From assembly GCA_019637355.1 (NCBI GenBank), contig JAHBVT010000001.1, positions 2,821,192 through 2,885,191 of the forward strand: DNA of 64,000 nucleotides, read 5' to 3'. Below the pieces are notes generated by a model. It worked only from the letters and a program-made list of their open reading frames with translations. It was not told the DNA's origin and did not search any database. The position numbers and the translations under genes were made by a program. Source of the stretch: Gemmatimonadaceae bacterium (GTDB lineage Bacteria; Gemmatimonadota; Gemmatimonadetes; Gemmatimonadales; Gemmatimonadaceae). Positions within the stretch are counted from its first letter, which is position 1. Each line of letters begins with the position of its first letter. Of this stretch, positions 23,253 to 40,511 are shown piece after piece.

Positions 23253-25094
23253 CTAGCGCCGCTCGCCGCGCGTGATGCGCTGCCAGTGCTCCCAGATGAG
23301 CACCATCGCGAGCGTGTCGAGCTTGCAGTACTCGCGCAGCAGCTGTGACCACTTGGCCTTGTGCTGCGGGTCGTCGCGCTCGAGGCCGTATGTCATCTCG
23401 AAGTATGCGCGGATGGCCCCCGTGCCCTCGCTCACCTCGCGCTCCTCGCCATCGATGATCTCCGCCGGCAGCGTCGCGTAGGGCCCCAGCGCCGGATCAC
23501 CTTCGCGGCCCGCCAACGCGGCGAAGCGCGTGCGCAGTTCCGGCGAATGCTTCCACAGCGCGTCCAGCACCCACTTGATGGAGTTGCTGCCCTGCATCCC
23601 CGGGTGGTAGTAGTGCTTGCGGCAGACCTTGAGCAGGTCGAGCTGCCGGCCCGCGCCGTTGCCGATCGTGAGCGCCGCCGCCTGCAACCAATTCTTGAGG
23701 TCCTCGTCCGCCGAGCCCAGCGTGGCCAGCTCCTCGGCCACGCGCGAGAGCACCGACTTCTCGAACGGCGACCACACCAGCAGCGTGCCGTCGTCGCCCA
23801 CCCACTCCCGCAGCGAACGCGCGAAGAGCTCGTTGGGCCAGATCGCGTCCGTGTTGAGGAACTCCGCGTGCTCCAGCGGCGCGCCCGGCGCGCGCTGCGT
23901 GTGGCAGCTCCATTGGAAGGCCAGCAGGCCGTAGGGCGTCATCCCCTTGTGATGCGGGATCGCGATGCGCGCCGCCTCGAAGTCAATGAAGTGCAGCGGA
24001 TACCGCGCCTGCGCCAGCTCGTGCGCGAGCGTCTCGCTCGTCCATTCGCTCTCGGCCAGCGTCTGCACGATCTGCACCTTCTGGCGCTCGCCGAACACGC
24101 CCGTGAGCGCCGCGACGTTCTCGTGCGGGATCTCCGTGACCAGGTCCACGCCGCGCGCGATCATCGCATCGGTCAGCTCGCCGCCGCGGTACAGCTGCAG
24201 CACGTGCGGCGTCTTCTGCCCACGCTCGCCCCAGCACTCGGCGAATCCACTCGGGCTCACACCCTCCGGCACGCGGAACTCACAGTCGCGGCACTTGCGG
24301 TTGAGCTGCGGCTCGATGCGCGTGAGCTCCGGCGTAAGCGAGGCCACGAACATCTGCGCCGCGTCGCGCACTTCCGGCTCGAGCAGTTCTACTTCCTGCG
24401 AGCAATCCACCGCCACCACCAGCCGCGTCTCGCGCGCCAGCGCCGCGTCGCCGATGAACTCCGCCGTCGCCAAGTGGCCGTCGTCTCCGCGCACGATGCG
24501 GAACCACTGCGGCATCCCGTCGTGCGGCACCGGCTGGGCTTTGTCCACCAGCATCAGGTGCGCGCGGATCGGCACGTCCGGGTACAGGTCGCGCAGCAGC
24601 GCCGCCTGGAACGTCACGTCCTCCAAGTATTCGCGCCAATCGGAGAGGATGCCGTGCGGCTTCTTCGTGGAGCGAAACAGCGAGCCTGTCTTTTCCTGAT
24701 TCTTCGCCTGCTTCACGAAGTCGATTGACGACGACTTCACTTCGTAGAGGTCGAAGCCCTGCGGCGTGCGCCGCAGGATGTCCACGCGCGCCTGGCGGAA
24801 GCCGTCGAACAGCGTCGCCTCGAACAGCGTGACCGGCTCGCGCTCCCCGCGCGCCAAGTGCTCGGCCGTTTCGCGGGCCGCTTCTTCGAGCGGCTTCTTG
24901 CCGTACTCCAGCGTGATCCCGTCCGGGAACATCTGCTTGGCCAGCAGCTCCACCATATAGCCGCCTTCGGCCAGCATCTGCAGGTACTCGTTGTCCTGCA
25001 GCGTGTTCGGGTACTTCAGCTCGCGGTAGTAGAGCTTGGTGGCGCAGGAGCGCGCGAGCTTGAAGTCCGACTTGGAGAGCGTGTGCCGAGTCAT
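23253..25094 (-). CDS. DUF2779 protein with RecB-like nuclease N-terminus
   Basis: Cytoplasmic protein of 613 aa. The N-terminus (TLSKSDFKLARSCATKLYY) and the motif QARVDILRRTPQGFDLYEVKSS resemble the PD-(D/E)XK core of RecB/Cas4-like nucleases. Cysteines in the N-terminal part and CRDCEFRVPEG could hold a cluster. The C-terminal half is DUF2779, with HFIDFEAARIAIPHHKG and YCKLDTLAMVLIWEHW suggesting an RNase H/DnaQ-like exonuclease fold. The role is unknown; nucleic-acid repair or defence is likely. It is convergent with the ion channel. Confidence 0.82.
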   Translation of the reverse strand: MTRHTLSKSDFKLARSCATKLYYRELKYPNTLQDNEYLQMLAEGGYMVELLAKQMFPDGITLEYGKKPLEEAARETAEHLARGEREPVTLFEATLFDGFRQARVDILRRTPQGFDLYEVKSSSIDFVKQAKNQEKTGSLFRSTKKPHGILSDWREYLEDVTFQAALLRDLYPDVPIRAHLMLVDKAQPVPHDGMPQWFRIVRGDDGHLATAEFIGDAALARETRLVVAVDCSQEVELLEPEVRDAAQMFVASLTPELTRIEPQLNRKCRDCEFRVPEGVSPSGFAECWGERGQKTPHVLQLYRGGELTDAMIARGVDLVTEIPHENVAALTGVFGERQKVQIVQTLAESEWTSETLAHELAQARYPLHFIDFEAARIAIPHHKGMTPYGLLAFQWSCHTQRAPGAPLEHAEFLNTDAIWPNELFARSLREWVGDDGTLLVWSPFEKSVLSRVAEELATLGSADEDLKNWLQAAALTIGNGAGRQLDLLKVCRKHYYHPGMQGSNSIKWVLDALWKHSPELRTRFAALAGREGDPALGPYATLPAEIIDGEEREVSEGTGAIRAYFEMTYGLERDDPQHKAKWSQLLREYCKLDTLAMVLIWEHWQRITRGERR

Positions 25095-25136: not shown

Positions 25137-25574
25137 CTAGGCTGGCGGGCGTGTCGGGTCAGTCCACTTGAGGCGGGGGAAGCGGGCGAAGTTGCTGTCC
25201 GCCGAGCAGAGTTCAGCCCCGTTCTCAATGGCAAGCGCCGCGAGGTGCGCATCCGGGTAGAGCTTCCCGCGGGCTCCGGCTGCGGCACTGAGCTCCGTGA
25301 GGATTCGCCAGTGGCGGGGACCCGGCTCAACCACGAGCACGTTGGGGCGCGACAGGAGCGTTGAGACGAAATGCTCTGCCTGGTCGCGCGACAGCAACGT
25401 CCGTCCTCCGATTCTGCGCGTGGTAAGGCGCAGGAATCCGACGATCGAGTGCCAGGGCAGGCCAAGGACGTCCGAATCGGCGTACGCGCGCTCCACGAAG
25501 TCGCGCACTGGGACGTGGAACTCGCTGCCTTCGTCGTTGAGGTACATCAAGACGGTGACGTCAAGAATCTTCAT
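25137..25574 (-). CDS. VapC-type PIN-domain toxin
   Basis: Predicted RNase toxin of 145 aa starting MKILDVTVLMYLND, with Asp5 as the first active-site acid. Later acids are in LYPDAHLAALAIENG and LCSADSNFARFP. The usual second acid (Glu) is not obvious in WHSIVGFLRLTT. It follows its antitoxin with a 14-nt overlap on the minus strand. Confidence 0.9.
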   Translation of the reverse strand: MKILDVTVLMYLNDEGSEFHVPVRDFVERAYADSDVLGLPWHSIVGFLRLTTRRIGGRTLLSRDQAEHFVSTLLSRPNVLVVEPGPRHWRILTELSAAAGARGKLYPDAHLAALAIENGAELCSADSNFARFPRLKWTDPTRPPA

Positions 25575-26764: not shown

Positions 26765-27988
26765 TTAGGCCGAGCGTTTGCGCTTGGCGGGTGCGGTGGC
26801 GGTAGCAAGCATTGCCTGAATCGCGGTTCCGATTGCTCGTCCTAAGAGCGGCGGCACCGCGTTGCCAATTTGCACGAGCACCTTGGACTTGGGGCCCGCA
26901 AAGCGGAAGGAATCCGGAAAGCTCTGGAGCCGTGCCAACTCACGTGGCGTGAGCACGCGGGGGTGTCGATAATGCACGAACACGCCGCCGTGATTCTCCT
27001 TGACCGTGCGGCTTGGCTCGTCTGGCGGTTGGCGATACCACGCGTCTGAGAATCCTTCGTAGACGCTCCCGCCCACCGGCGTTTGCGCAAGCCGCTCCAC
27101 GAAGTCCGGCTTGTGCCGCGTGAACTCGTGGCTCCACTCCACGTTCTCAGGGGCGTCCTCAAGGTCGCCGATGGCATCTTGCGTCGTGACCCAAGGCAGG
27201 AGCGCGGCATCAAAGAGGGACGTCGCACTCGACGGCTCGCGGTGCGTTGGCTCCGGAAACACGATAGGCACGTCGAGCCGAGTACCGACGAATATCACAC
27301 GCTCGCGTCGCTGCGGAACACCGTAATCGGCCGCGTTGAGCACGCGATACTCCACGCGATACCCAAGCCGCTCCAGACGCGAGACAATGCGCTCCGGAAC
27401 TGACTCACGTAGCTTGGCCGCCATTCGCTGTAGCTGCGCGTACTCCGCGTTCACCTGCTGAAGGTGCTCCGCATCTGCCGCCGTGAACGGAATGCGATCC
27501 GTGTTCTTGTGTTGCTTGCGCAGCTTGCGAAGCCTGATCTGCTCCTTTTCCAGTACCTTGATGCGATCGAGCGTGGCTTGATCGGAGGCTGAGAGGTCGG
27601 TGCGATCGTGCTTCATTGAGAGCAGGCCCTTCACGTTCTCCATCACGAAGAACTTGGGGCGCAGCGCGTCGACCACGGCGACGTAGTCCTCAAAGAGATG
27701 CCCACGCTCGTCGTCCACGTCGCGCTTACCGGCTACGCTGTACGCCTGACAGGGCGGGCCGCCGACGACGACATCCACGTTTTGCGCGCGGGCGTAGGCG
27801 ATAATCTCTTCCCGGAGCGCGGGTTCGGTGATGGATCCGAGAAAGAAGCGTGAGCGCGGGTGGTTCAGCCGGTGCGTCTCCGCCGCCGATGCGGCGATAT
27901 CGTTGCCCGCGACGACTTCGAAGCCCGCGAGCTCGAGGCCGTAGCTCAGGCCGCCGCAGCCGGCAAATAGGTCGAGGACTCGGGGCAT
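26765..27988 (-). CDS. DNA (cytosine-5-)-methyltransferase
   Basis: C5 methyltransferase of 407 aa that makes 5-methylcytosine in a specific site. All main motifs are present: I (VLDLFAGCGGLSYGLELAGF), IV with catalytic Cys80 in VGGPPCQAYSVAGKRD, VI (FVMENVKG), VIII (QRRERVIFVGTR) and X (VQIGNAVPPLLGRAI). The target-recognition region lies between about residues 240 and 330 and does not reveal the site. It likely pairs with the nuclease candidate encoded just upstream on the same strand (28065-28808). Confidence 0.93.
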   Translation of the reverse strand: MPRVLDLFAGCGGLSYGLELAGFEVVAGNDIAASAAETHRLNHPRSRFFLGSITEPALREEIIAYARAQNVDVVVGGPPCQAYSVAGKRDVDDERGHLFEDYVAVVDALRPKFFVMENVKGLLSMKHDRTDLSASDQATLDRIKVLEKEQIRLRKLRKQHKNTDRIPFTAADAEHLQQVNAEYAQLQRMAAKLRESVPERIVSRLERLGYRVEYRVLNAADYGVPQRRERVIFVGTRLDVPIVFPEPTHREPSSATSLFDAALLPWVTTQDAIGDLEDAPENVEWSHEFTRHKPDFVERLAQTPVGGSVYEGFSDAWYRQPPDEPSRTVKENHGGVFVHYRHPRVLTPRELARLQSFPDSFRFAGPKSKVLVQIGNAVPPLLGRAIGTAIQAMLATATAPAKRKRSA

Positions 27989-28064
27989 CGGAAGGATTGC
28001 TTAATCCAGAAAATGGTGGTAGTGGAGAGCCGAATATACGCCGAAGCACTCTGCGCCGCAACGA

Positions 28065-28808
28065 TCATTTTAGCTCATCGAGGAGCCTGACGAGTTCCTT
28101 CATCTTGAATCGGAACTTGAAGCCGGCCCGATTCTTATGAATCTGGAACTCGCCGATGCTGATGCGACCGAGCTCGGCCGTAGGCTCGTAACGCACGGTG
28201 CAGCCCTCCTTCCACGAGGCTGGGGTCTGCGTGAAGTAGAACTCGCCTTGGTTCCAATCAACCTTCGGCAGCTTCGAGGTGCGAAAGACCCGGTATCCCG
28301 GCGTCGGCTTCAGCCAAAGCCAAAGCAGGTAGTCGCACGTAAGGAGGGCATCTAAGTACCGGGTCATCTTCGCGACAATTCGCTCCTGCGCCACTCTACG
28401 AAATGCTTGTGGAAGAACGTGGCCGGCTTGGTTGAGGTCAGCAGGTTGGTAGAGCTCTGCGAACTCTTTGGCGTAGGTCTTCGCCCCCGGTTGGCCAATT
28501 CCTGGCGGGCACACCTTTCCACTGACCCTCGACTCGTTTGTCTTGACCGAGAGCGTCTTTCCTCCCGCAAGTTTAAAGTCGAAAGGATTCTTGCCCTGTC
28601 TGCCAGCGGCACTAAGCTCGGAACCGACGTGACGCGCAACTGCTGGTAGCTCCACTAGTGCCAGTGTGACGATAGGGGAGACCGCTCGAACAAGCCTGCT
28701 GTCAATTCTACGTTCCAGTCCCTGCGGCTCAACGCCCGCTACGTTACAGATGGCCTTCTCGGTCGAGAGTCCCAGCACCTCTGTGTTCTTCTTCTTCGCA
28801 GCTGTCAA
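28065..28808 (-). CDS. candidate type II restriction endonuclease
   Basis: Protein of 247 aa directly upstream of, and on the same strand as, the C5 methyltransferase (76-nt gap). It contains LSTEKAICNVAGV, and PFDFKLAGGKTLSVKTN near residue 80. The latter fits the Asp-x-(Ser/Glu)-Val-Lys pattern of several type II endonucleases. The chosen TTG at 28808 has a strong AGGAG six bases upstream. An ATG at 28865 would add 19 residues and place the start 5 bases from the divergent decarboxylase start. Family assignment is inference from motif and context. Confidence 0.6.
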   Translation of the reverse strand: MTAAKKKNTEVLGLSTEKAICNVAGVEPQGLERRIDSRLVRAVSPIVTLALVELPAVARHVGSELSAAGRQGKNPFDFKLAGGKTLSVKTNESRVSGKVCPPGIGQPGAKTYAKEFAELYQPADLNQAGHVLPQAFRRVAQERIVAKMTRYLDALLTCDYLLWLWLKPTPGYRVFRTSKLPKVDWNQGEFYFTQTPASWKEGCTVRYEPTAELGRISIGEFQIHKNRAGFKFRFKMKELVRLLDELK

Positions 28809-28870
28809 CCTACACTCCTGAAGGTAGAATGAAGTTGGGTTGCGCCGCCCCTGCTTAAGACTCATTACCT

Positions 28871-30319
28871 ATGCCGGAAGTCTCAACCGCCGAGCTCCTC
28901 GCCGCACTCGAAGCCGACACCACGTTCGAGGCCGGCGCCCAGTTCCTGAAGATCGCGAGCGACTACTTCCAGCGGACCCGCAGCGGCGAGGGTCCCGTGT
29001 CCACGCGGCTCGATAAGCGAGCGCTGACCGCGCGCTTCGACGAGCCCATCCCGTTGGGGATGACGCCGCTCGCGGACGTCGCCAAGCGCATCGAGACCGA
29101 CGTGATGCCTGACGTGATCCAACTGATGCATCCCAAGTACATGGGCCATCAGGTGTCGGCGCCGCTGGCGGCGGCCGTGTGGACCGATGTGGTGATCAGC
29201 GCCATCAACAACTCCCAGGCCGTGTGGGAGATGAGTCCCGTGACCACCGTGATCGAGGAGCGCGTGATCGGGTGGATGTGCCAGCTCGCCGGCTACGGCC
29301 CTGGCGCCGCGGGAACGTTCACCAGCGGCGGCACCGAGGCCACGCTCACCGCGCTGCTCGCGGCGCGCGCGGCCAAGTACCCCGATGCCTGGCGCAGCGG
29401 CTGGTTCGGCAAGCAGCCGCCCGTGCTCGTGCACGGCGAGCACGCGCACTACGCCGTGCAGCGCGCGGCTGGCGTGATGGGGCTCGGGACCGACAACTGC
29501 ATCGCGGTGGGGAGCACGCCCGAGTTCAAGATGGATCCGGCCAAGCTGGCCGTGGTTTTGGAACAGCTACACCGCGAGGGGCGCGATGTGCTCGCCGTGG
29601 TCGCGACCGCGGGGTGCACTGCTGTCGGGGCGTTTGATGACCTGGAGGCGATCGCGGATCTCTGCGACCGCTATGGGCACTGGCTGCACGTGGACGGCGC
29701 GCACGGGGCGTCGGCGCTGCTCAGCGAGAAGCACAAGTGGCGGGTAAAGGGGATCCACCGGGCGCGGTCGCTGGCGTGGGATCCGCACAAGATGATGTTG
29801 ATGCCGCTGAGCGCGGGGGTGGTGTTGGTGCGGTCTGGTAAGGACTTGGAACGCGCGTTTGCTCAGTCGGCGCCGTATCTGTTTCATGGGGCGGACTCGG
29901 AGGTCGAGCTGAGTCCGGATTTGGGGAAGCGGAGTTTTCAGTGTTCGCGGCGGGCGGATGCGTTGAAGGTTTGGGTGGGGTTGCAGCGGTTTGGAGTTGC
30001 AGGGATTGGCGCTATGTATACTGCGCTCTGCGATTCCGCGGCGGACTTACACGCGAAGCTGGCGGCGAGGCCGGGTATCGATCCCCTGCACGTGCCGGAG
30101 TCGAACATTCTCGCTTGGAGCGTCGCAGAGAGCGACAGCGAGACCGTGGCGCGTATCCGGCGGGACATCCGCGAGGTGGATGGTGCGTGGCTGACCAGCA
30201 CGGTCATTGCTGGCACCCCCTGTCTTCGCGTGACGATGATGAACCTGCGAACGGACGCTACGGAGTCGTTAGCGTCGCGGCCACCGCGCGAACGGTCGCG
30301 ACCGCGCGTTCGAGATTGA
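28871..30319 (+). CDS. pyridoxal-phosphate-dependent decarboxylase, altered C-terminus
   Basis: Fold-type I PLP enzyme of the group II amino acid decarboxylase family. HVDGAHGASALL and SLAWDPHKMMLMP contain the cofactor Asp and the Schiff-base Lys307; TFTSGGTEATLTALL is the phosphate-binding region. The substrate amino acid is not clear. The last 20 or so residues (after VTMMNLRTDA) read into DNA that codes for AbiEii on the other strand. A diverged remnant of a normal family C-terminus lies 4.3 kb downstream at 34598-34753, so the gene end was probably replaced when the island formed. Confidence 0.87.
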   Translation: MPEVSTAELLAALEADTTFEAGAQFLKIASDYFQRTRSGEGPVSTRLDKRALTARFDEPIPLGMTPLADVAKRIETDVMPDVIQLMHPKYMGHQVSAPLAAAVWTDVVISAINNSQAVWEMSPVTTVIEERVIGWMCQLAGYGPGAAGTFTSGGTEATLTALLAARAAKYPDAWRSGWFGKQPPVLVHGEHAHYAVQRAAGVMGLGTDNCIAVGSTPEFKMDPAKLAVVLEQLHREGRDVLAVVATAGCTAVGAFDDLEAIADLCDRYGHWLHVDGAHGASALLSEKHKWRVKGIHRARSLAWDPHKMMLMPLSAGVVLVRSGKDLERAFAQSAPYLFHGADSEVELSPDLGKRSFQCSRRADALKVWVGLQRFGVAGIGAMYTALCDSAADLHAKLAARPGIDPLHVPESNILAWSVAESDSETVARIRRDIREVDGAWLTSTVIAGTPCLRVTMMNLRTDATESLASRPPRERSRPRVRD

Positions 30320-31130
30320 ACTCCGAGAACTCGCGGTCGCGAAGCATCGGTTTCAGTTGCGCCTCGAGCTGCTGGCGCAGTTCGTTCACCCGAGCGTCCG
30401 ACACGTCGACTGGACCCGTGCGCGGAGCTGCGAGCTTCTGGCGAAGCAGGGTGTGCAGATCGGCGTCCGCTGGGTCGAGCTTCCCCGAGCGCACTGCGTG
30501 ATCGACGTCGAAGTAGTCGCGGATCGCCACTTCGCGGCGACACATCGCCGCGCGCAGCTTCTCGGCCATCGTCTCTCGATAGGAGAGCGCGTCCACGGGG
30601 AACGATGCGACGAGCGCGGCACCGGTCACTGGATTGCGCAGCAGCGTCGCTGCGGGGCCACGCTCGATGGGCAGCAGCGTCGGCTCGGAGAGACTGATTT
30701 CGATGCGAACGGGCTCGGCTTGGCCATCCAACAGCGACTGATATTCGAGCGCCCCGTTGTACTGCCTGGACGAGTCTGCGCCGGTGAGTTGGTCACGGAC
30801 GCGGAACCCCGGCAGTGACGTCTCCGTGCGTGCGATGAGCGCCCGTGCGGTGGCGACCAGCGCACTTCGTTCGGTCCGTTTCGGCTCGCCGGACACGGAG
30901 ACGGTGAAGTCCAGATCCTCGCTCAGGCGGTAGAAGCGGTCGTGGATCTTGGCGAGGCAGGTGCCACCCTTGAACGTGAGCCCTGCACTGCCGCCGGCGA
31001 GGTACTCTAGCACGACGCTGCAGAAGTAGTCCTTCTCGATCAGTCGCGGGTTGAATCCCGTCTCGCGCGCGGTGTAGCCGATGGCTTGGTACATCAGCTC
31101 AGGATCCGTCTCGTGCAGGAGCATCGGCAC
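30258..31130 (-). CDS. AbiEii-type nucleotidyltransferase toxin
   Basis: Toxin of the type IV AbiE abortive-infection system, 290 aa. It has the DNA polymerase beta-like nucleotidyltransferase motif in LTFKGGTCLAKIHDRFYR and SEDLDFTVSV. These enzymes modify tRNA or other targets and stop growth during phage infection. The gene starts 2 nt after the AbiEi stop, and its 3' end overlaps the decarboxylase 3' end by 62 nt on the opposite strand. Confidence 0.92.
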   Translation of the reverse strand: MPMLLHETDPELMYQAIGYTARETGFNPRLIEKDYFCSVVLEYLAGGSAGLTFKGGTCLAKIHDRFYRLSEDLDFTVSVSGEPKRTERSALVATARALIARTETSLPGFRVRDQLTGADSSRQYNGALEYQSLLDGQAEPVRIEISLSEPTLLPIERGPAATLLRNPVTGAALVASFPVDALSYRETMAEKLRAAMCRREVAIRDYFDVDHAVRSGKLDPADADLHTLLRQKLAAPRTGPVDVSDARVNELRQQLEAQLKPMLRDREFSEFNLERAVATVRAVAATLTTP

Positions 31131-31132
31131 GC

Positions 31133-31933
31133 TCAGACCTCACCGTTGACGACCACACCCCAGCGGCGGCTCACCGTACCCCGCTTGGGCAGGGTCGGAA
31201 TCCACGGAATCGTGCTGCTCGATGCGCTGATCGCGGACTCCAGCTTCTTAAGCTGTGCGCTGCCGACGCCGGCACGTTCGAGCAGGACGCCGACGCGGCG
31301 GATGCTGCTCACGTCGCCGTAGCGCAGGGTGCTCGCAATCAACGACGCCGTCGATACGCGGCGCTCCTCGAGCTCGCGTAGGATCCAGCGATAGCCGCGC
31401 GGCAAACTGTCGAATCGCGACCAGTCGCGTACGGCGTCCACGAGGCTCCTGACTCTCGACGAGTACAGGGCGACGTCACCATCGCGGGTCGTGACGCTTT
31501 CGGTATCGCCAAGGCGATCGCCGGCCACCTTGATGAGCGTGAGCGAGACCGCACCGATGCTCCTGTCGCCGGAGTACAGGGTGTTGTAGACGCTGGTGCG
31601 GTTCGGAATCTGCTCCGTGAAGCCGTAGCGGTTGAATGCCTTCGGTCCGCAGATCTGGTAGCGTCCGTCGCGGTCGCGCAGGAGCGTGTTGATGGCAAGC
31701 GCTTCGTTCGGCGTCCACGCGCCGCCGAGCTGCAGCTCGCGCGGCACGAGGTAGAGCCCGCGTCGTACTTGGGCGATGAGACCCGACTTTGCGAGTCGGG
31801 TGTAGAGTTCCCGCTCTTGCTTTGGCGTGATGGCCAAGGGTGCCACGAGGTCGCCCGTGCGCAGCTCACGAAGCTTGCGGAGCTGTGTCCAGGCGAAGAG
31901 TTGGCGCTCGAGGTTCCCGAGGCGGCGTTTCAT
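31133..31933 (-). CDS. AbiEi-type antitoxin / transcriptional repressor
   Basis: Antitoxin of 266 aa with an N-terminal winged-helix domain (LAITPKQERELYTRLAKSGLIAQVRRGLYLVP) and a C-terminal domain typical of AbiEi (NEALAINTLLRDRDGRYQICG, FNRYGFTEQIPNRTSVYNT). AbiEi proteins bind inverted repeats in their own promoter. A matching repeat lies at 31948-31980. It is first in the two-gene AbiE operon. Confidence 0.9.
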   Translation of the reverse strand: MKRRLGNLERQLFAWTQLRKLRELRTGDLVAPLAITPKQERELYTRLAKSGLIAQVRRGLYLVPRELQLGGAWTPNEALAINTLLRDRDGRYQICGPKAFNRYGFTEQIPNRTSVYNTLYSGDRSIGAVSLTLIKVAGDRLGDTESVTTRDGDVALYSSRVRSLVDAVRDWSRFDSLPRGYRWILRELEERRVSTASLIASTLRYGDVSSIRRVGVLLERAGVGSAQLKKLESAISASSSTIPWIPTLPKRGTVSRRWGVVVNGEV

Positions 31934-32026: not shown

Positions 32027-32383
32027 TCACTCCGCCACCTGCGCGTAATTGTCGCCCGTATCCGGCGGCAGCTCGTACGACAGATAATAGGAGAGCGTCC
32101 GCACCTCTCCGCCGTGCAGGTGAATTTTCACCCCGACCTCGAACATCCCCCACGTCCAGATCGTGATTCCGAACTTGTTGTCGCGATTCGCGGAGCGGCG
32201 GACGCGGCGGCGAAAGCTCGGGTCAAGCTCGTACTCCACCTCTTCGATGCGGTCCAGTTCCTCTGGCGTCGCTTCTATCCAAAGTCCGACGTGGTAGTGT
32301 TCACGCCCACCCTCGGAAGGGACCCAGAACTTGATCTGGCCATCAGCGTTCCGGATTACCTGATTTTTCACTGAGTATGGCAT
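32027..32383 (-). CDS. prokaryotic YEATS (pYEATS) domain protein
   Basis: Protein of 118 aa made almost wholly of one YEATS-like beta-sandwich. The signature is EEVEYELDPSFRRRVR, then FGITIWTWGMFEVGVKIHLH, matching the V-x-Y-x-L-x-P-S-F and W-G-x-F pattern of YEATS domains. The N-terminal part (FWVPSEGGREHYHVGLWI) gives the first strands. Eukaryotic YEATS domains read acylated lysines; the ligand of bacterial ones is not established here. It is last in a three-gene operon with a SLATT membrane protein and an alpha/beta hydrolase, with 16 nt after the SLATT gene. Confidence 0.8.
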   Translation of the reverse strand: MPYSVKNQVIRNADGQIKFWVPSEGGREHYHVGLWIEATPEELDRIEEVEYELDPSFRRRVRRSANRDNKFGITIWTWGMFEVGVKIHLHGGEVRTLSYYLSYELPPDTGDNYAQVAE

Positions 32384-32399
32384 CTGGAGTCTCCTCGTG

Positions 32400-32993
32400 T
32401 CAGCTCGCGCGCACGCGCACGACGGGAATCATTCCCGGCACGCTTTGCGGAAGCGCGTCCCGGCCCTCGGACTCGGCGAGCGGCGCGGCGGCAGTCGCGC
32501 GGGCCAGGAGTACGGCGATCAGCGATTGCCGGAAGGCTTCCTCGGCAAACGCTCGGTCCGCAGGCTCTACGACGATCGGCTCGCGCATCGCCTGTAGCAT
32601 CCGCGTCGACGCCTGACGAATGGGGGCATCGCCGCCGTCGAAGTCGAGCTCGCTGGCGACACTCAGGGCGTAGGATTCGAGCGTTCCCTTGACCTCCTTC
32701 AGCTCGCTCATACACTCCCAGAACTTGCGAAGCATCTCAGCAGGAGAGAACTGCTGCTGGATGGCCGCGAGGGTGGATGTGACGAGGGCCGCGCTGACGG
32801 TGACCCATTTCCAGTCCAGGCCTGCCGCGGCCGCCCCCGTGACGATGCCGAGGATCACCGTGGTCCATCTGAGCGCCGCACTCCGCCTCGCCTCGCGGTG
32901 TAGCCGCCGCTCGTAGGCCGAGAGGTGTGCTGTCGCGTCCGACCAGGTATGCTGCGCCGCAAGCAGCAGCGTCCGCTGGCGTTCCGAGATCAT
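32400..32993 (-). CDS. SLATT-domain two-transmembrane protein
   Basis: Protein of 197 aa with a charged N-terminal helix, two adjacent membrane segments (about residues 42-60, TTVILGIVTGAAAAGL, and 64-80, VTVSAALVTSTLAAI), and a cytoplasmic helical tail. This layout is that of the SLATT family, proposed pore-forming effectors in nucleotide-sensing and other conflict systems. It lies between the hydrolase (11-nt gap) and the pYEATS gene (16-nt gap). SLATT assignment rests on architecture and context, as the family is poorly conserved. Confidence 0.72.
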   Translation of the reverse strand: MISERQRTLLLAAQHTWSDATAHLSAYERRLHREARRSAALRWTTVILGIVTGAAAAGLDWKWVTVSAALVTSTLAAIQQQFSPAEMLRKFWECMSELKEVKGTLESYALSVASELDFDGGDAPIRQASTRMLQAMREPIVVEPADRAFAEEAFRQSLIAVLLARATAAAPLAESEGRDALPQSVPGMIPVVRVRAS

Positions 32994-33004
32994 CTCGCCA
33001 CCTC

Positions 33005-34441
33005 CTATCGCCTCACCGGCTTGTCAGAGAGCCACACGTAATCGCACTTGCGGTCGACGCCAATGTCGACGAGCGTCGTCGTGTTCGGGAACAGCAGTTG
33101 CGGTGTGCTTCGCCGCCTGTGCGGAGCGGACGTCGCGAGCGCGACGGCGTGCAGCTTGTCGTTCTCGTAGCGAATGCCGCCATCCACCGGCGGCACGTAC
33201 ACGCGCATCGTGAGCGCCACATCCTGGTCGAGGGCTTGCGCGGCGTCCTTGATGATCTTCTTGACCGCCTGCGGATCGACGAGGAACCTGCGGTACGCGG
33301 CATTGCTTCGGTTCTCGTGGCCTTCAGCCACGAGGGCCTTGTGGGCCGCCTCACCAAACCTTCGCTCCTCCGCGCTGTCTCTGGTGGACGTGCGCCAACC
33401 CGCGGAGTCTAGGCGCGAGAGCTTGACGATGCCGAAGCTGAGCGTGAAGTCGCGCACGGGAACGTCGTGATCGTCCCGTACGCGGACCAGGAACTGCTGG
33501 TATTGTGGGTACGCGACATTCTGATAGGTCCTGTCAGTGACCGCTCGTACGTCCTGCTGCAAGCGCCGAAACGAGTCTGCATCCCGTGTGCGGAGCGCGC
33601 GCAGCACCAGTTGCTCGAGTTCCGTGGGCTGCACTCGCCGCGCGTCGAACCGCGACTTGATCGTCGTGTGGTTCAGGCCCTCGAGCACTCCGAATGCGAA
33701 GTCGTGCGCGTGGGAGTGCCCGCTCCAGCGATACGGCGGCGCATCTGCGTCGTCGCCGTAGTGGGTCGGGGTCACTCGCAAGAGCACCGCGTTGAGCGGC
33801 GCGCCCGCGATGACAATCGTGCCGTCGGTTCCCGGCTTCGTGACCATTCCGGGGATTCCCTTGTACGGCTCGACGCCCGTCAGCACCGTGAGCTGAATGC
33901 CGTCGGGCGAGAAGTGGTTGGCATCGCCAAGCGTATCGCGCTCCGCAAGCTGCCACTGGTAGGGACTCGCAAGCTCCAGCCCGTCGAGCAGCGTCCGGCC
34001 CGTTTCGAGGAAGTTGCCGAACTCCCAGCGTCCTTTGACGATCGACCCGAGAAATGATTTGCCGCGGTGCGCCAGCGGCGATCCGAAGTTCGCCGGGGCG
34101 AGCATCACCAGCCGCCGGATGGGGCAGTCCGCGATGCGATTGCCGTCTCGCAAGTAGTAGCGCCAGATCCAGTGTCGGATGACCAATCCGCCCGTGGAGT
34201 GCACGATAACGTTGATCTGTCGCTTCGCCGTGCCGTCGGCACCGATGATGCCGTGCTCGATGAGGCGTTCGTGCAGCCCGTCGACGATGTCGTCGAAGGT
34301 GAGCGCGTCCTCGCGTGACTCGTACTCGCCGAAGAGGATCTCACGGACGTCGGCGATATTGTTGGCGTGCAGGAAGGCCTTGAGGTCGGTGAAGGACTTC
34401 GCCGTGTCGCTCCAGCCGTGGACGAGAATCGTCGTGGTCAT
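33005..34441 (-). CDS. alpha/beta hydrolase (lipase/PGAP1-like) with C-terminal beta domain
   Basis: Predicted esterase or lipase of 478 aa. TILVHGWSDTAKSF is the oxyanion-hole region and the nucleophile is Ser82 in VIVHSTGGLVIRHW. Candidate His residues lie in WSGHSHAHDF. After about residue 320 a separate domain, probably beta-rich (QFLVRVRDDHDVPVRDFTLSFG ... VALTMRVYVPPVDGG region), follows. The ATG at 34441 is chosen over a far-upstream frame that would cross the promoter. It is first in the operon with SLATT and pYEATS genes. No signal peptide is seen, so it should be cytoplasmic, where it could attack the inner membrane. Confidence 0.82.
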   Translation of the reverse strand: MTTTILVHGWSDTAKSFTDLKAFLHANNIADVREILFGEYESREDALTFDDIVDGLHERLIEHGIIGADGTAKRQINVIVHSTGGLVIRHWIWRYYLRDGNRIADCPIRRLVMLAPANFGSPLAHRGKSFLGSIVKGRWEFGNFLETGRTLLDGLELASPYQWQLAERDTLGDANHFSPDGIQLTVLTGVEPYKGIPGMVTKPGTDGTIVIAGAPLNAVLLRVTPTHYGDDADAPPYRWSGHSHAHDFAFGVLEGLNHTTIKSRFDARRVQPTELEQLVLRALRTRDADSFRRLQQDVRAVTDRTYQNVAYPQYQQFLVRVRDDHDVPVRDFTLSFGIVKLSRLDSAGWRTSTRDSAEERRFGEAAHKALVAEGHENRSNAAYRRFLVDPQAVKKIIKDAAQALDQDVALTMRVYVPPVDGGIRYENDKLHAVALATSAPHRRRSTPQLLFPNTTTLVDIGVDRKCDYVWLSDKPVRR

Positions 34442-34754: not shown

Positions 34755-36122
34755 ATGGCGACAACCTACGCGCAGTTCGATGGTGACTCCGCATCGGAGG
34801 CTGAGGTCCTCGAGCACGCGCGGAAACTGAAGGGCAAGCGACTGCGCGATGTCATTCCGGCAAGCGGACGCGTCTCGGAATCGAAGCCCGGGGACAAGGG
34901 TGCGGTGGGGCAGCTCGTCGAGCGCGCGTTCGGCCTCCCGCGCAGCAGCGACCAACGACCTGACTTTGGTGCGGCGGGCATCGAGCTGAAGGTCGTTCCA
35001 TTAAAGCGCAGCGCGAGGTCCGTTCGCTCCAAAGAGCGCACCAGCGTCACCATGATCGACTATGGTGCGTTGGTCGACGAGTCGTGGCCGACGGCCAAGG
35101 TTCGCAAGAAGCTCCAGAAGATTCTCTTTGTCTTCTGCTATCACGTCGACAAGGGTAACCCGCTCGACACGGTCATCGAAGCGACCGTGCTCTGGACGCC
35201 GCAGGCGGACCTGCTGCCTCAGCTCGAGAGTGACTGGTCCGTCGTGCAACAGAAGGTCCTCGATGGTCTCGCGCACGAGATCTCTGAGGGCGATGGGCGC
35301 GTCCTCGGCGCTGCGACGAAGGGAGCTGGCGGCGGGAGGCTCGTTGACCAGCCGCGGAACCCGGCGATTCGCGCGAAGCCTCGCGCGTGGGCGCTGAAGC
35401 CTGCGCTCACTACCTGGCTCTACGAGAAGGAGCGTGCCGGCAAGCTTCCCGTTGTCACGCTTCGTGATGCGCTCAAGCTGAAGGCGACCGAGAGCTTCGA
35501 GGATGCTGTGCTGCGGCGGCTGCAGGCGTACGAAGGAAGGACGCTCGGCCAGGTCGCAAAGCAGCTCAACGTTCCGCTCAGCAAGGCGAAATCCGGGGCG
35601 GCTGTGCTTGTCCGCCGTGCTATCGGCGTTCTCGATGACAAGGCGTCAATCGAGGAGTTCAGGGAGCGCGGCATTCAAATCAAGATCGTCCCCATCTCCC
35701 CGGCGGGTCGGCCGTATGAGGCTATGTCCTTCCCGAAGTTCAACCATATGGAAGTTTGGAAGGAGGAGTGGGAGGAAAGCGATCTGCTGCAGCAGCTCAA
35801 TCGGATGTTGATTGTTCCGCTTGTCCGGAGTGCGCGGAAGACGCCTAAGGAGAAGCAGGTCTGGGGGCGCGCATTCTTCTGGTCGCCGACCGCCGATCAA
35901 CTGAACGGTATCGAGTGCGAGTGGCGGGACTATTGTCGCCGCATTCAGGCGGGCGAGGCCAACCAACTTCCGGGGGCCAGCCAGACCAAGTACATCCACG
36001 TTCGACCGCATGCGCGGGACAGTCGGGACACTGAGCAGGCACCTCGGGTCGGGCAGGTGGTGAAGAAATGCTTTTGGTTGAACCAGGACTTCATCGCACA
36101 CATACTAGAATCCGGCTCCTGA
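34755..36122 (+). CDS. Sau3AI/MutH-family type II restriction endonuclease
   Basis: Restriction endonuclease of 455 aa. The N-terminal MutH-like domain has KGAVGQLVERAFG and RPDFGAAGIELKVVPL, giving Glu56, Asp70, Glu77 and Lys79. These match the MutH catalytic set in spacing and even in number. A second half, starting near residue 220 (LRDALKLKATESFEDAVLRR and SIEEFRERGIQIKIVPIS), is a degenerate MutH-like copy, as in Sau3AI. Sau3AI cuts GATC; the same site here is inference. The cognate enzyme is probably the C5 methyltransferase at 39063-40415. Confidence 0.87.
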   Translation: MATTYAQFDGDSASEAEVLEHARKLKGKRLRDVIPASGRVSESKPGDKGAVGQLVERAFGLPRSSDQRPDFGAAGIELKVVPLKRSARSVRSKERTSVTMIDYGALVDESWPTAKVRKKLQKILFVFCYHVDKGNPLDTVIEATVLWTPQADLLPQLESDWSVVQQKVLDGLAHEISEGDGRVLGAATKGAGGGRLVDQPRNPAIRAKPRAWALKPALTTWLYEKERAGKLPVVTLRDALKLKATESFEDAVLRRLQAYEGRTLGQVAKQLNVPLSKAKSGAAVLVRRAIGVLDDKASIEEFRERGIQIKIVPISPAGRPYEAMSFPKFNHMEVWKEEWEESDLLQQLNRMLIVPLVRSARKTPKEKQVWGRAFFWSPTADQLNGIECEWRDYCRRIQAGEANQLPGASQTKYIHVRPHARDSRDTEQAPRVGQVVKKCFWLNQDFIAHILESGS

Positions 36123-36222
36123 CTTTGACTCGCGGCGCAAACAACCCCGGGGCACAACTTCTCAGGCCGATTTCGTCACGGAAACCTCCGGTCCAACCCA
36201 GCGCACGTCCGGACTGATCAGT

Positions 36223-38265
36223 CTAAGAGCCTCGGCGCCTCGCCGGTGTACGCGACTGCCGAGTCAGCGGACCGGATTCAGCGACACTTACTCGGTCACT
36301 CGAGCTCTCCATGAGTGCAGGCGGTAGATACTCGCCATGCATGTCGCGGAGATACTTCACGGCGCTCTCGTCTGACGCCTCATACTGCAGGGCGTCCTGG
36401 AAGAACCGCAAACGCGCCTTACAGTCCGCAACAACCTGCCCCCAGGACTTCACCCAGATCTCGATGTTGTCGGAAGAGTATGTTTGGCCTGGCTGAAGGC
36501 GTTGTTGCGACGCCAGCTGCGACACCTCATCGGTCAGCTCATTCGACACGGCCCAGAATATCCATCGCGTGTTAGTGTCGCGGAACCGCTCATCCTTAGC
36601 AACTGCAAACGCATACGACTGCAGCTGTGAATGAACAGACAGAGACACTTTCACGCGTGGTCTCTTGAGTTCGACAACCAAGTGCTCTCGGGCGTTTGGG
36701 TTGGCCTGGGGCACCTTTCGCGAGAGCATCAGGTCTACTATTCCCATGCTCCCATCCTCTCTTTGGACCGGCCGCCCGTCTTCTTCTGCATCCTTTCTTA
36801 GCAGATGAAGGTGCTTCGCGAGAACTTCGTCCAGTGATTTATCACTGGCGGTCAAATGGAACTGTTCTCCGAAGATCCAGGTGTTCTTCTCCACAATCTT
36901 GTGAAGCTGGCTGCGCTCAAGTAGCTGGTCTTTCGAGTTCTTTTCAAAGACGAGCCTCTCGAGACCAAGGACAAAGTCTAGTCGGTCGGCTACCAAACGG
37001 GCCGCGCTGATGATTGAGGAGAGAGAGGTCCTGTCGAGCAGGGATGCCAGTTGCTGTTGTTTGACCAACGGCAGCTCTAGCACCTCTGAGAGGATGCGGC
37101 GCGCGACGTCTGGCGAGGCCTCTACTGCTTGCCGCAACAATCGCAGCTGCAGGCGCTGCGTGCGATCGTCTGAATCTGCGAAGCTCGGGAGATACTCTGA
37201 GACGTTGAGGGCGACGAGATCGAAGACCTGACGCTCTGCGACTTCAACCGGAGATTTCGCCTCTCCTTGAAACGGATAGATATCCCGCTTCTTCCATCCA
37301 TCCACGAGCTCTACCGCTCTCTCAGCGCTCCGACTCCGAAAATGGGACTTAAGCGCCTGCTTGCCGGCCTCGACGAGCCTCCCTGTTCCTTCAGAGAGAT
37401 CGTCGAGTTCCAGTTGGTTGTTCTCATGCAACTCGCGTATGTACGCAGACCGCAAGTACGCCGTGAAGTCAAATCCGGGCGCTTGAATTTTGGGCGCCAC
37501 GCGATGGTAGGTGAAACCATCCTCATCGCACAGAAATAGCGAGCGTTCAGAGGGAATCGACCATTCGATGATGACGAGCGTGGCAGACACGCTGCGACCG
37601 TCATCGAGAGAGACTGGCCCAATCTCGTATTCGTGGTTTGCGATTTCGAGAGCAGCGGGATCGACCCGAGCTCCATCATAGGTCACCCGTGTGTCAGAAT
37701 ACTGCCGCAGGTAAATTGCAAGCTGCTCGGCCACCTCCACTCGCGCCTTGTCGCCCTGCAAGCGGAACTCTTTCGAGAATCCTGAAATCTCCACACAAGT
37801 GCCAGTGGGAGTGTCGTCAGGCACCTCCCGAACATCGCTAAGAAGGAATGTGCCAAGCCTGTCTCTAGACCCCGAGATTGAGAATTGAATCCGACGGTCC
37901 CCATCCTGCGCTACTGTCGACCATTCGACTCGGTCGCCGAGTGCGAACGCCCGGAATCGGCCCTTCCCAGCCCGACCGTGCAGGATGCGACCTCTCTTCC
38001 GGGAGCGGCTTCCAAATTTTTTCCAGGAACCACCCAGGCGTCCGAACGAGTGCTCGGCGTCGTGCGGCAACATTCCCAAGCCATTGTCAACTACTCGAAT
38101 AGTATCGAGCGCCCCAAGAAGGCTTCTCTCAAATATGACAGATACCTCCGTCGCATCTGCATCTAGGCCATTCCACACAAGCTCAGCCAGTGCGAGGATC
38201 GGCTTCTTCACGGCCGACATGCGCTGCAAGTGGTCTGGCTGAACTGCGACTGAAATTGTCTTCAC
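36223..38265 (-). CDS. GHKL ATPase (MORC/MutL-like) fused to a PD-(D/E)XK nuclease
   Basis: Protein of 680 aa. The N-terminus is a GHKL ATPase: Glu28 and Asn32 in ALAELVWNGLDADAT, Asp60 in VVDNGLGM, and GRAGKGRFRAFALG near 96-109. A middle region with alpha-helical repeats follows. The C-terminus has a Shedu-like/DUF4263-type nuclease core: QLHKIVEKNTWIFGEQF, Asp511 in GIVDLMLSR, and Glu532 and Lys534 in HLVVELKRPRVKV. MORC-like ATPases are known companions of C5-methyltransferase restriction systems. It lies between the Sau3AI-like enzyme (convergent) and the DUF4145 gene. Base content is clearly less GC-rich than the core, with many CATG sites, so it was probably transferred. Confidence 0.82.
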   Translation of the reverse strand: MKTISVAVQPDHLQRMSAVKKPILALAELVWNGLDADATEVSVIFERSLLGALDTIRVVDNGLGMLPHDAEHSFGRLGGSWKKFGSRSRKRGRILHGRAGKGRFRAFALGDRVEWSTVAQDGDRRIQFSISGSRDRLGTFLLSDVREVPDDTPTGTCVEISGFSKEFRLQGDKARVEVAEQLAIYLRQYSDTRVTYDGARVDPAALEIANHEYEIGPVSLDDGRSVSATLVIIEWSIPSERSLFLCDEDGFTYHRVAPKIQAPGFDFTAYLRSAYIRELHENNQLELDDLSEGTGRLVEAGKQALKSHFRSRSAERAVELVDGWKKRDIYPFQGEAKSPVEVAERQVFDLVALNVSEYLPSFADSDDRTQRLQLRLLRQAVEASPDVARRILSEVLELPLVKQQQLASLLDRTSLSSIISAARLVADRLDFVLGLERLVFEKNSKDQLLERSQLHKIVEKNTWIFGEQFHLTASDKSLDEVLAKHLHLLRKDAEEDGRPVQREDGSMGIVDLMLSRKVPQANPNAREHLVVELKRPRVKVSLSVHSQLQSYAFAVAKDERFRDTNTRWIFWAVSNELTDEVSQLASQQRLQPGQTYSSDNIEIWVKSWGQVVADCKARLRFFQDALQYEASDESAVKYLRDMHGEYLPPALMESSSDRVSVAESGPLTRQSRTPARRRGS

Positions 38266-38352
38266 TGCTCACCAAGAGATTGCAGGGTCACCATGGTCAA
38301 CAGCCTCAAATGTTTTTCGCGTACCTAGATGCGGCGCCACTCCCGCACAACC

Positions 38353-38889
38353 TTACAACGATGTCTCGCCTTTGGGTGTAGCGCGCCGCGGAATGCTGGT
38401 TGAGAGCTCAGGCGCCTGGGTTGCCACAACAGTAGCATGCAACAAATTCTCGACGATGTCGAGGATAACGGTTAGCTCGGAACCGTTTGGGCTGTAGCCC
38501 CTGTGAGCTGCTGCATTCCCCGCATCGAGTGCGGTTCCGAGCGACTGCCGTGAACGGCGACTTAGATAGCCATCATTTTCAAGTTGCTCAAGTCTTGCAG
38601 CGAAGGTCCCGGCGTCTCCAACTGTTCTGACGATGAACAAGTCTATCAAGGCGCGGCATCCCATAGCTGCAAGTCGACGACTGTCAGTGCCAAGCGCTTC
38701 GTACACTTCGATGAGCAGTTCCTGCTCTGCCTCAGGAAGGTTGGAAATCCAAACCGGCAAGCGTCGGAAGAGTCGCGGTGGGAAGAACGACACTTCAGAC
38801 TCGCCATCATTCCACTCTGAGAAGAAGTACTCACGTCTAACGCACACGCTCTCGCACCCGCGACACTCGAGCATCGCGTATCGCGTCAC
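38353..38889 (-). CDS. DUF4145-domain protein
   Basis: Protein of 178 aa. Its C-terminal two-thirds fits DUF4145: RRLAAMGCRALIDLFIV near residue 75 and GNAAAHRGYSPNG near 120. The N-terminus has CRGCESVC, a possible zinc-binding motif. DUF4145 proteins often sit in restriction and defence loci, and the role is unknown. It lies between the GHKL-nuclease and the methyltransferase on the same strand, and shares their lower GC. Confidence 0.78.
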   Translation of the reverse strand: MTRYAMLECRGCESVCVRREYFFSEWNDGESEVSFFPPRLFRRLPVWISNLPEAEQELLIEVYEALGTDSRRLAAMGCRALIDLFIVRTVGDAGTFAARLEQLENDGYLSRRSRQSLGTALDAGNAAAHRGYSPNGSELTVILDIVENLLHATVVATQAPELSTSIPRRATPKGETSL

Positions 38890-39062
38890 CCACGAGATGC
38901 TTTCGTGACCGTGGGTTGCTGAACCTGTTTAGCGCCTAGTGGCAACAACATCGTGACGCGTTTCCGAGTCGCAGTCATTGCAGTGCGCTCGCTCCATCGC
39001 AGAGCTCGAAGCAGCTGGAGTGGTTTCGCTCACTGGACCCATCCCTTGCTTGACGGAGAAGC

Positions 39063-40415
39063 TCATGTGGCATTTTGTACAGCTTTACTGCGCAGACGCA
39101 CAGCCTCTCGAACAGCAACTTCGACGCCGATAGCTTCGACCAAACCGACCACGAGCGCATTACCCATACAAAACGCCCGCTGTGTTTCGGTCATCTCAGT
39201 TGCGGTGTGATCATCAGGAAAGCCGTTGAGGCGCTCGAGTTCAACGGGCGTAAGTCTCCGGTATCCGCCGTCCTTCGCAGCCACGATGTGCTTCGACCGA
39301 CTCGGCGACGCTCCTCCCTCGGAGGTGAGAATCGTGCGCGAAGGTCGATCCACCGGATCCGGAAATGGCAGCGCCCCCTCAGTGTAGAAGTACTTGAACC
39401 CGCTCGCCTTGTGGACGCGCTCTTCCGCTTTCGATCCCTTGGCGGTCCTCCACTTGGCCAGCGCAGCGTCGATCACGAAGAACTGTTTCGGCACCGCGCC
39501 GCGCTCAAGCACATCTCGCAGCAGCAGCGAACGCCCCACAAAGTTTGGCTTGGGATTATAGGTCCAGACGATGCGCTTCCGAGAGGCGCCAATCCCGATA
39601 GGGCGGACGTACCCAGCCTGCCCGAACTTCGTACGCTCGACGCCGCGCCCGAAATCAGCTGACAGCTCGTGTAGTTCTCCGGTCAGCTCGAAATGCTCAG
39701 TCTCCGAGAGATCTAAACGATTGTCTGAGTGCACGGGAAGCGAATTGGCGAACACCCCACTCTCAAAGACAACGTCCGCACCGCTCTTCTTCGACTTGGC
39801 CTTCCCCGCCAGCTGCGCCACGATGAACACACGCCGCCGCCGCTGCGGGAACCCATAGTCCGCCGCATTCACCACGCGCCATTCGACCTCGTACCCAAGG
39901 TCGCACAGACTCGCGAGCATAATCGCAAAGTCACGCCCACGCTGCGTCGCCGGCGACTTGATCAACCGATCGACATTCTCCAGAAACACCCACTGCGCGG
40001 GCTTCTTCTTGTCCTTGAGGATGCGCAGCAGCCGATGAATCTCCCACCACAGCACACCCTTCTTTCCTTGAAGGCCTGCCGACTGATTCAACGGCTTCGC
40101 GACAGAGTAGTCCTGGCAGGGAAACCCGCCGACGACCATATCGATGTCTGGCAGCTTCCGCTCGCCACGCTCGACCTCGTCGAGTACCTTCGCAATGTCT
40201 TCGTTGCTGTGCCCTTCCGTACCGAACCGCTCGACGTAGCACCGCGACGCAAACTGTTTCGACGGCGTGCCAGGCGGCTCCCACTGACTGCTAAACACCG
40301 TGACGAAGTCCGGCGACGCGGCTTCGAGTCCGAGACGAAACCCTCCCACACCGGCAAACAGCTCTGCAACGCGAATCTGTTTGCGACTCGACTTCGTCTT
40401 TGGCTTCGCGGGCAT
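39063..40415 (-). CDS. DNA (cytosine-5-)-methyltransferase, Sau3AI-type
   Basis: C5 methyltransferase of 450 aa. Motif I is VAELFAGVGGFRLGLEAA; motif IV is VVGGFPCQDYSVAKPL with Cys100; FLENVDRL is motif VI; QRRRRVFIVAQ is motif VIII; and MGNALVVGLVEAIG is motif X. It probably protects against the Sau3AI-like endonuclease encoded 4 kb downstream on the other strand. The start at 40415 opens into a basic tail and then motif I; an ATG-like start at 40448 is also possible. It is divergent from the MarR gene. Confidence 0.93.
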   Translation of the reverse strand: MPAKPKTKSSRKQIRVAELFAGVGGFRLGLEAASPDFVTVFSSQWEPPGTPSKQFASRCYVERFGTEGHSNEDIAKVLDEVERGERKLPDIDMVVGGFPCQDYSVAKPLNQSAGLQGKKGVLWWEIHRLLRILKDKKKPAQWVFLENVDRLIKSPATQRGRDFAIMLASLCDLGYEVEWRVVNAADYGFPQRRRRVFIVAQLAGKAKSKKSGADVVFESGVFANSLPVHSDNRLDLSETEHFELTGELHELSADFGRGVERTKFGQAGYVRPIGIGASRKRIVWTYNPKPNFVGRSLLLRDVLERGAVPKQFFVIDAALAKWRTAKGSKAEERVHKASGFKYFYTEGALPFPDPVDRPSRTILTSEGGASPSRSKHIVAAKDGGYRRLTPVELERLNGFPDDHTATEMTETQRAFCMGNALVVGLVEAIGVEVAVREAVRLRSKAVQNAT

Positions 40416-40511
40416 ACTTTCTCTCGGCAAGGCGGGTGAAGGCCTCAATATAGGCCTTCGATCAATACCGAGGAAACACCGAATCTTGCCCTGCGCCAGC
40501 GCCCAAACGAG

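What the first reader, a model, noticed from the sequence alone, without database searches (positions are those of the whole stretch)
36223..38265. GHKL ATPase fused to a Shedu-like nuclease in a Sau3AI-type locus
Seen: intact GHKL motifs (Glu28, Asn32, Asp60) and, 450 residues later, an Asp511 ... Glu532-x-Lys534 nuclease core in one 680-aa protein. Known: MORC/MutL-like ATPases accompany C5-methyltransferase restriction systems. Inference: an ATP-gated DNA clamp with its own nuclease, adding a second layer to the Sau3AI-like enzyme, perhaps for hemimethylated or otherwise protected DNA.
Basis: partly seen in the sequence, partly recalled or inferred. Interest (0 to 1): 0.68.

Follow-up and report, generated by a model that had tools for sequence, protein, structure and literature searches.

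The report
ATP-gated Shedu-type nuclease, mobile cargo
The gene is real and intact and joins an ATP-driven clamp to a DNA-cutting domain, a combination already described and shown to block phages in a cholera bacterium, and here it sits as exchangeable cargo inside an unrelated restriction system.

Summary
Window 36223-38265(-) encodes one intact 680-aa protein. It has a GHKL ATPase plus S5 module (VIA-align Z 16-20 to Hsp90/TRAP1 and MORC) and a C-terminal PD-(D/E)XK nuclease. The nuclease matches Shedu/DUF4263 by profile-profile comparison (96%, E 1e-9); controls (MutH/Sau3AI, PDDEXK_5, methyltransferase) score under 2% and NucS 71%. The fusion is already described: paraMORC3 (Iyer 2008) and VcSduA (2025), a single-gene defence that needs both active sites. 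The proposed partnership with the Sau3AI-type system is not supported. One congener has the same R and M genes at the same chromosomal site with unrelated genes between them, a second has only a Vsr gene there, and no other locus examined pairs this protein with Sau3AI. GHKL and DUF4145 are lower in G+C than the genes around them. Best reading: an ATP-gated, stand-alone anti-phage nuclease carried as swappable cargo between the R and M genes. New member of a known kind, modest interest.

The parts
36223..38265 (-). GHKL-Shedu fusion protein (paraMORC3 / VcSduA-like), 680 aa
   Evidence: Intact ORF; alignments of 19 and 29 sequences; structure
37771..38247 (-). GHKL ATPase domain, about residues 7-165, with E28, N32, D60-x-G62-x-G64, G97-x-x-G100-x-G102-R103
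   Evidence: Pfam HATPase_c_3; profile matches MutL, MORC and topoisomerase VI in PDB; VIA-align Z 16-20 to TRAP1, Hsp90 and MORC
37321..37770 (-). S5-type transducer domain, about residues 166-315
   Evidence: Fold match to TRAP1/MORC2 spans model residues 7-315
36949..37320 (-). Helical middle region, about residues 316-439, part of it at lower confidence
   Evidence: Predicted helices 292-440, block pLDDT 57-94
36376..36948 (-). PD-(D/E)XK nuclease domain, Shedu/DUF4263-like, residues 440-630: E450, D511, E532-x-K534, Q547
   Evidence: hhalign 96.4% to DUF4263 set against controls of 0.3-1.7% and NucS_C 71%; fold matches NucS Z 10, Shedu Z 7-8
38353..38889 (-). DUF4145 (HEPN-clan) protein just upstream of the GHKL gene; probable co-cargo; keeps the H but lacks an R at the HEPN catalytic position
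   Evidence: Pfam DUF4145 1.4e-11; sequence GNAAAH; HEPN assignment from PMC3710099; function unknown
34755..36122 (+). Sau3AI-family type II restriction endonuclease (flanking, not judged part of the system)
   Evidence: NCBIfam restrict_Sau3AI 6e-83 (279 bits, below the 300-bit cut-off), Pfam MutH 3e-36
39063..40448 (-). C5-cytosine methyltransferase of the Sau3AI-type system (flanking)
   Evidence: Pfam DNA_methylase 4e-56; PADLOC MTase_II 4e-138

Best explanation
A single-protein anti-phage nuclease of the GHKL-Shedu (paraMORC3, VcSduA-like) kind. Shown: the GHKL and S5 fold, the PD-(D/E)XK fold related to Shedu/DUF4263, conservation of both active sites, wide spread on plasmids, prophages and chromosomes, and insertion between R and M genes that exist without it. 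Inferred: it works as a homodimer in which ATP binding closes the GHKL clamp on invading DNA and this releases the C-terminal nuclease to cut; hydrolysis resets it. What it senses is unknown; by analogy with other Shedu proteins it may be a DNA end or a replication or repair intermediate. It is most likely independent of the adjacent Sau3AI-type enzyme and travels, perhaps with the DUF4145 gene, as exchangeable cargo in a defence island.
For: Motif invariance in 29 sequences. Fold matches for both ends. Profile-profile link to DUF4263 with controls. VcSduA, with the same architecture, blocks phages as a single gene and loses activity with E27A or K557A (PMC12137116). Relatives occur alone among structural genes of Pasteurella phages, on plasmids next to conjugation genes, or beside other restriction types: ISP, LlaMI, helicases. 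The orthologous island in G004 has unrelated genes in this slot and G125 has Vsr only. Lower GC3 of GHKL (0.64) and DUF4145 (0.59) than MTase (0.71) and Sau3AI (0.77).
Against: No assay here. The Pfam SduA_C model itself does not match, and the closest solved fold by Z is NucS/EndoMS rather than Shedu. The VcSduA sequence was not at hand, so the relation to it rests on architecture, motifs and the authors' description. The position between R and M of one system would also fit a functional link.
Confidence: 0.8

Rival explanations
1. It is a working subunit or second layer of the Sau3AI-like system: the GHKL clamp loads at sites that the Sau3AI-type enzyme or methyltransferase marks, and its own nuclease cuts hemimethylated or protected DNA.
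For: It lies between the M and R genes, downstream of the M gene on the same strand. Sau3AI is a MutH relative and the GHKL domain is MutL-like, and MutL activates MutH. Some relatives sit near C5-methyltransferases.
Against: Congeners G004 and G125 keep R and M (71-82% and 52-64% identical) without it. Relatives are never beside Sau3AI in the other loci examined. The Sau3AI gene is convergent, so not in the same operon. Relatives pair with other nuclease types or none.
Confidence: 0.1
2. A mismatch-repair or housekeeping nuclease (NucS-like cutting end with a MutL-like ATPase) rather than a defence system.
For: NucS/EndoMS is the closest solved fold of the nuclease domain (Z 10.2-10.4), and the GHKL domain is closest to MutL by sequence. 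Iyer 2008 raised this for stand-alone paraMORC3.
Against: Patchy distribution (2 of 395 genomes in the phylum), location in mobile elements and a defence island, stronger profile match to Shedu than to NucS, and proven defence by VcSduA.
Confidence: 0.06
3. A guard module with the DUF4145 (HEPN-clan) protein that watches the surrounding restriction system and kills the cell when it fails, as PrrC does with its type I system.
For: The pair is nested between R and M. paraMORC-HEPN fusions in restriction neighbourhoods were likened to PrrC/RloC (PMC3710099).
Against: DUF4145 was not found next to any relative examined, its HEPN motif lacks the catalytic arginine, and VcSduA protects while preserving viability.
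Confidence: 0.04

Closest known systems
VcSduA (Shedu type I-D) of Vibrio cholerae VSP-II WASA, PMC12137116
   Same: Single protein, N-terminal GHKL ATPase, C-terminal PD-(D/E)XK DUF4263-type nuclease; catalytic Glu (E27 there, E28 here) and Lys (K557 there, K534 here)
   Different: Distance between the two catalytic residues is 530 there and 506 here; different host and neighbours; sequence identity could not be measured here; defence not tested for this one
paraMORC3 family of GHKL ATPases (Iyer, Abhiman and Aravind 2008, PMC2292703)
   Same: GHKL plus S5 plus a conserved C-terminal restriction-endonuclease-fold domain with E-D-ExK (here E450, D511, E532-x-K534); found in or near restriction systems or alone
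   Different: Restriction partners differ; I found no statement in the text read that links it to Sau3AI
Shedu SduA of Bacillus cereus and E. coli (PDB 8ti8, 8ti9, 8ps4)
   Same: Nuclease domain fold and catalytic motif order (VIA-align Z 7-8; hhalign 96% to a DUF4263 set)
   Different: Other N-terminal sensor domains, no GHKL; EcSduA is a tetramer that senses DNA ends (PMC12904381)
NucS/EndoMS repair endonuclease (PDB 2vld, 5gke)
   Same: Closest solved fold of the nuclease core (Z 10; 2.3 A over 106 residues for 2vld)
   Different: Different N-terminal part, repair function, weaker profile match (71%)
BbrUII/HgiDII family restriction enzymes (NCBIfam NF050001)
   Same: Match to the GHKL part, residues 26-171
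   Different: 50 bits against a 550-bit cut-off; only the N-terminal part matches

Membership tests
paraMORC3 (Iyer 2008) | N-terminal GHKL ATPase with intact motifs | tested here: met
   HATPase_c_3 1e-12; invariant motifs; fold Z 16-20
paraMORC3 (Iyer 2008) | S5-fold domain after the GHKL domain | tested here: met
   Fold match spans residues 7-315 of TRAP1/MORC2-type GHKL+S5 modules
paraMORC3 (Iyer 2008) | C-terminal globular domain with E-D-ExK of restriction-endonuclease fold | tested here: met
   E450, D511, E532-x-K534 invariant; PD-(D/E)XK fold
paraMORC3 (Iyer 2008) | Phylogenetic grouping with the published paraMORC3 sequences | not tested
Shedu type I-D (VcSduA) | Signature DUF4263 nuclease domain, by profile-profile homology | tested here: met
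   hhalign 96.4%, E 1.2e-9; controls 0.3-1.7%; NucS_C 71%
Shedu type I-D (VcSduA) | Direct match to the Pfam SduA_C model (PF14082) above its cut-off | tested here: not met
   No match in G000 at E up to 1; PADLOC SduA only 0.064. I therefore call it Shedu-like and file it under paraMORC3
Shedu type I-D (VcSduA) | Single-gene defence needing the catalytic Glu and Lys | not testable with these tools
   Shown for VcSduA only
Subunit of a Sau3AI-type restriction system | Conserved linkage with the Sau3AI R and M genes | tested here: not met
   R and M without it in G004 and G125; it without R in G010 and in the other loci with relatives

The most novel reading that the evidence does not exclude
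The R and M genes of the Sau3AI-type system act as a bracket for swappable defence cargo, and here the GHKL-Shedu nuclease with its HEPN-clan neighbour has become tied to it, for example firing when the outer restriction system fails or meets modified DNA.
Probability: 0.07. Interest if true: 0.55.

Novelty: new member of a known kind. Interest (0 to 1): 0.27.

Why it matters
It adds a divergent member to the recently validated class of ATPase-gated Shedu nucleases, whose trigger is still unknown. The 29-sequence alignment fixes which residues define both active sites. The congener comparison gives a clean natural experiment showing that such nucleases can be exchanged between the R and M genes of one restriction system, so genome position alone should not be read as partnership.

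Tried and rejected
Functional tie to Sau3AI: looked for co-occurrence in the 74 held records that encode the protein or a relative; only the window's own records (L007, L018) had Sau3AI (most loci cover only a few kilobases each side and some are near-duplicates). VcSduA sequence: could not be obtained, so no direct identity. Sequence search of PDB with the nuclease-domain profile gave nothing. Foldseek on the full model listed only GHKL proteins, so the nuclease domain was folded alone. Shedu relatives in viral contigs: none found from one query. Sau3AI relatives in viral contigs: none. NucS as the better parent of the nuclease: weaker than Shedu by profile, although slightly better by fold. 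The Gu 2025 Shedu classification paper is not held, so type I-D is taken from PMC12137116.

Full report
Observation. The ORF at 36223-38265(-) is intact, 680 aa, GTG start. Pfam recognises only the GHKL part (HATPase_c_3, residues 25-128, 1e-12); PADLOC gives a weak SduA hit (E 0.064). Relatives were gathered from bacterial genomes, plasmids, phages, the phylum and prophage contigs. With members down to 19% identity this is far beyond chance.

Fold. The model of the whole protein has mean pLDDT 84.4. Residues 7-315 align with TRAP1/Hsp90 and MORC2/3/4 at VIA-align Z 16-20, that is, GHKL plus S5; by sequence the family profile finds MutL, PMS2, MORC and topoisomerase VI. The C-terminal 216 residues folded alone (pLDDT 86.5) match PD-(D/E)XK nucleases: NucS/EndoMS Z 10.4 and 10.2, FokI 8.3, Bacillus cereus Shedu 8.1, E. 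coli SduA 7.6. Pfam HSDR_N_2, another PD-(D/E)XK family, is hit by 9 of 19 aligned members.

Which nuclease. A set of seven DUF4263 (Shedu) domains was built from family-scan hits and plasmid genes, most of them annotated as Shedu. Profile-profile comparison with the nuclease part gives 96.4% probability, E 1.2e-9, with D, E-x-K and Q aligned. Controls: Sau3AI/MutH 1.7%, methyltransferase 1.1%, PDDEXK_5 pair 0.35%, NucS_C set 71%. So 'Shedu-like' is right, although the Pfam SduA_C model itself does not reach the protein.

What is known. Iyer et al. 2008 (PMC2292703) defined paraMORC3: GHKL plus S5 plus a C-terminal restriction-endonuclease-fold domain with E-D-ExK, in restriction neighbourhoods or alone. 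In 2025 VcSduA of Vibrio cholerae, described as GHKL plus DUF4263 nuclease and tied by its authors to paraMORC3 and Shedu type I-D, was shown to protect against phages as a single gene, with E27A and K557A both abolishing activity (PMC12137116). The fusion is therefore known and a relative is tested; this protein is a further member of that kind.

The Sau3AI context. The flanking genes are a Sau3AI-family endonuclease (+) and a C5-methyltransferase (-), with a DUF4145 gene and the GHKL gene between them, the latter two on the methyltransferase strand. Two genomes of the same genus carry the R and M genes without the GHKL gene. In G004 the island is at the same place: the genes after the methyltransferase (MarR-like, glyoxalase-like, YceI-like, amidohydrolase-like by inspection; 61-89% identical) follow in the same order, and R and M are conserved at DNA level (70-75%), but the stretch between R and M is unrelated and encodes two PDDEXK_5-like proteins, an HTH protein and a Fic protein. 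In G125 only a Vsr gene lies between them. Conversely G010 has the GHKL gene (50-51% identical) without Sau3AI. Among the other loci with relatives no Sau3AI-like gene was seen; C5-methyltransferases appear in a few, and other neighbours include LlaMI, a type ISP enzyme, helicases, conjugation genes and phage structural genes. GHKL and DUF4145 have lower GC3 (0.64, 0.59) than MTase (0.71) and Sau3AI (0.77). This fits separate acquisition as cargo.

Mechanism. Shown: folds, motif conservation, mobility, separability. Inferred from VcSduA, MutL and MORC: a homodimer whose ATP-dependent closure around DNA licenses the C-terminal nuclease. The trigger is unknown; other Shedu proteins sense DNA ends (PMC12904381). 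Action on hemimethylated DNA is not excluded but has no support here.

Limits. 'Orthologous island' for G004 rests on gene order and identity, not on a tree.

Noticed in passing
window 34755-40448 compared with L031 9271-15110 and L032 10338-13694: The same Sau3AI R and M genes flank different genes in congeners: DUF4145 + GHKL-Shedu here, PDDEXK_5/HTH/Fic/PDDEXK_5 in G004 (same chromosomal site), Vsr only in G125. R and M seem to bracket a cargo slot.
   Followed up: partly
window 38353-38889 (-): DUF4145 (HEPN-clan) protein upstream of the GHKL gene; the motif reads GNAAAH, so the HEPN arginine is missing and it may be a non-catalytic HEPN.
   Followed up: partly
window 26765-28865 (-): A second C5-methyltransferase (26765-27988) next to a 266-aa protein with a PADLOC REase_II match (5e-9): probably a second type II restriction system.
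   Followed up: partly
window 32027-34441 (-): pYEATS protein, SLATT-like two-helix membrane protein and a serine-esterase-like hydrolase in one run of genes: looks like a predicted effector module.
   Followed up: no
window 30258-31933 (-): AbiEi/AbiEii-type toxin-antitoxin pair.
   Followed up: no
window 23253-25094 (-): 613-aa protein with a DUF2779 domain, near a PIN-domain protein (25137-25574).
   Followed up: no
L016 5989-7947, L030 5989-7947: Pasteurella phages Pmp3 and Pmp14 carry a GHKL-Shedu gene about 35% identical to this one among structural (tail) genes, a likely prophage-borne defence gene.
   Followed up: no
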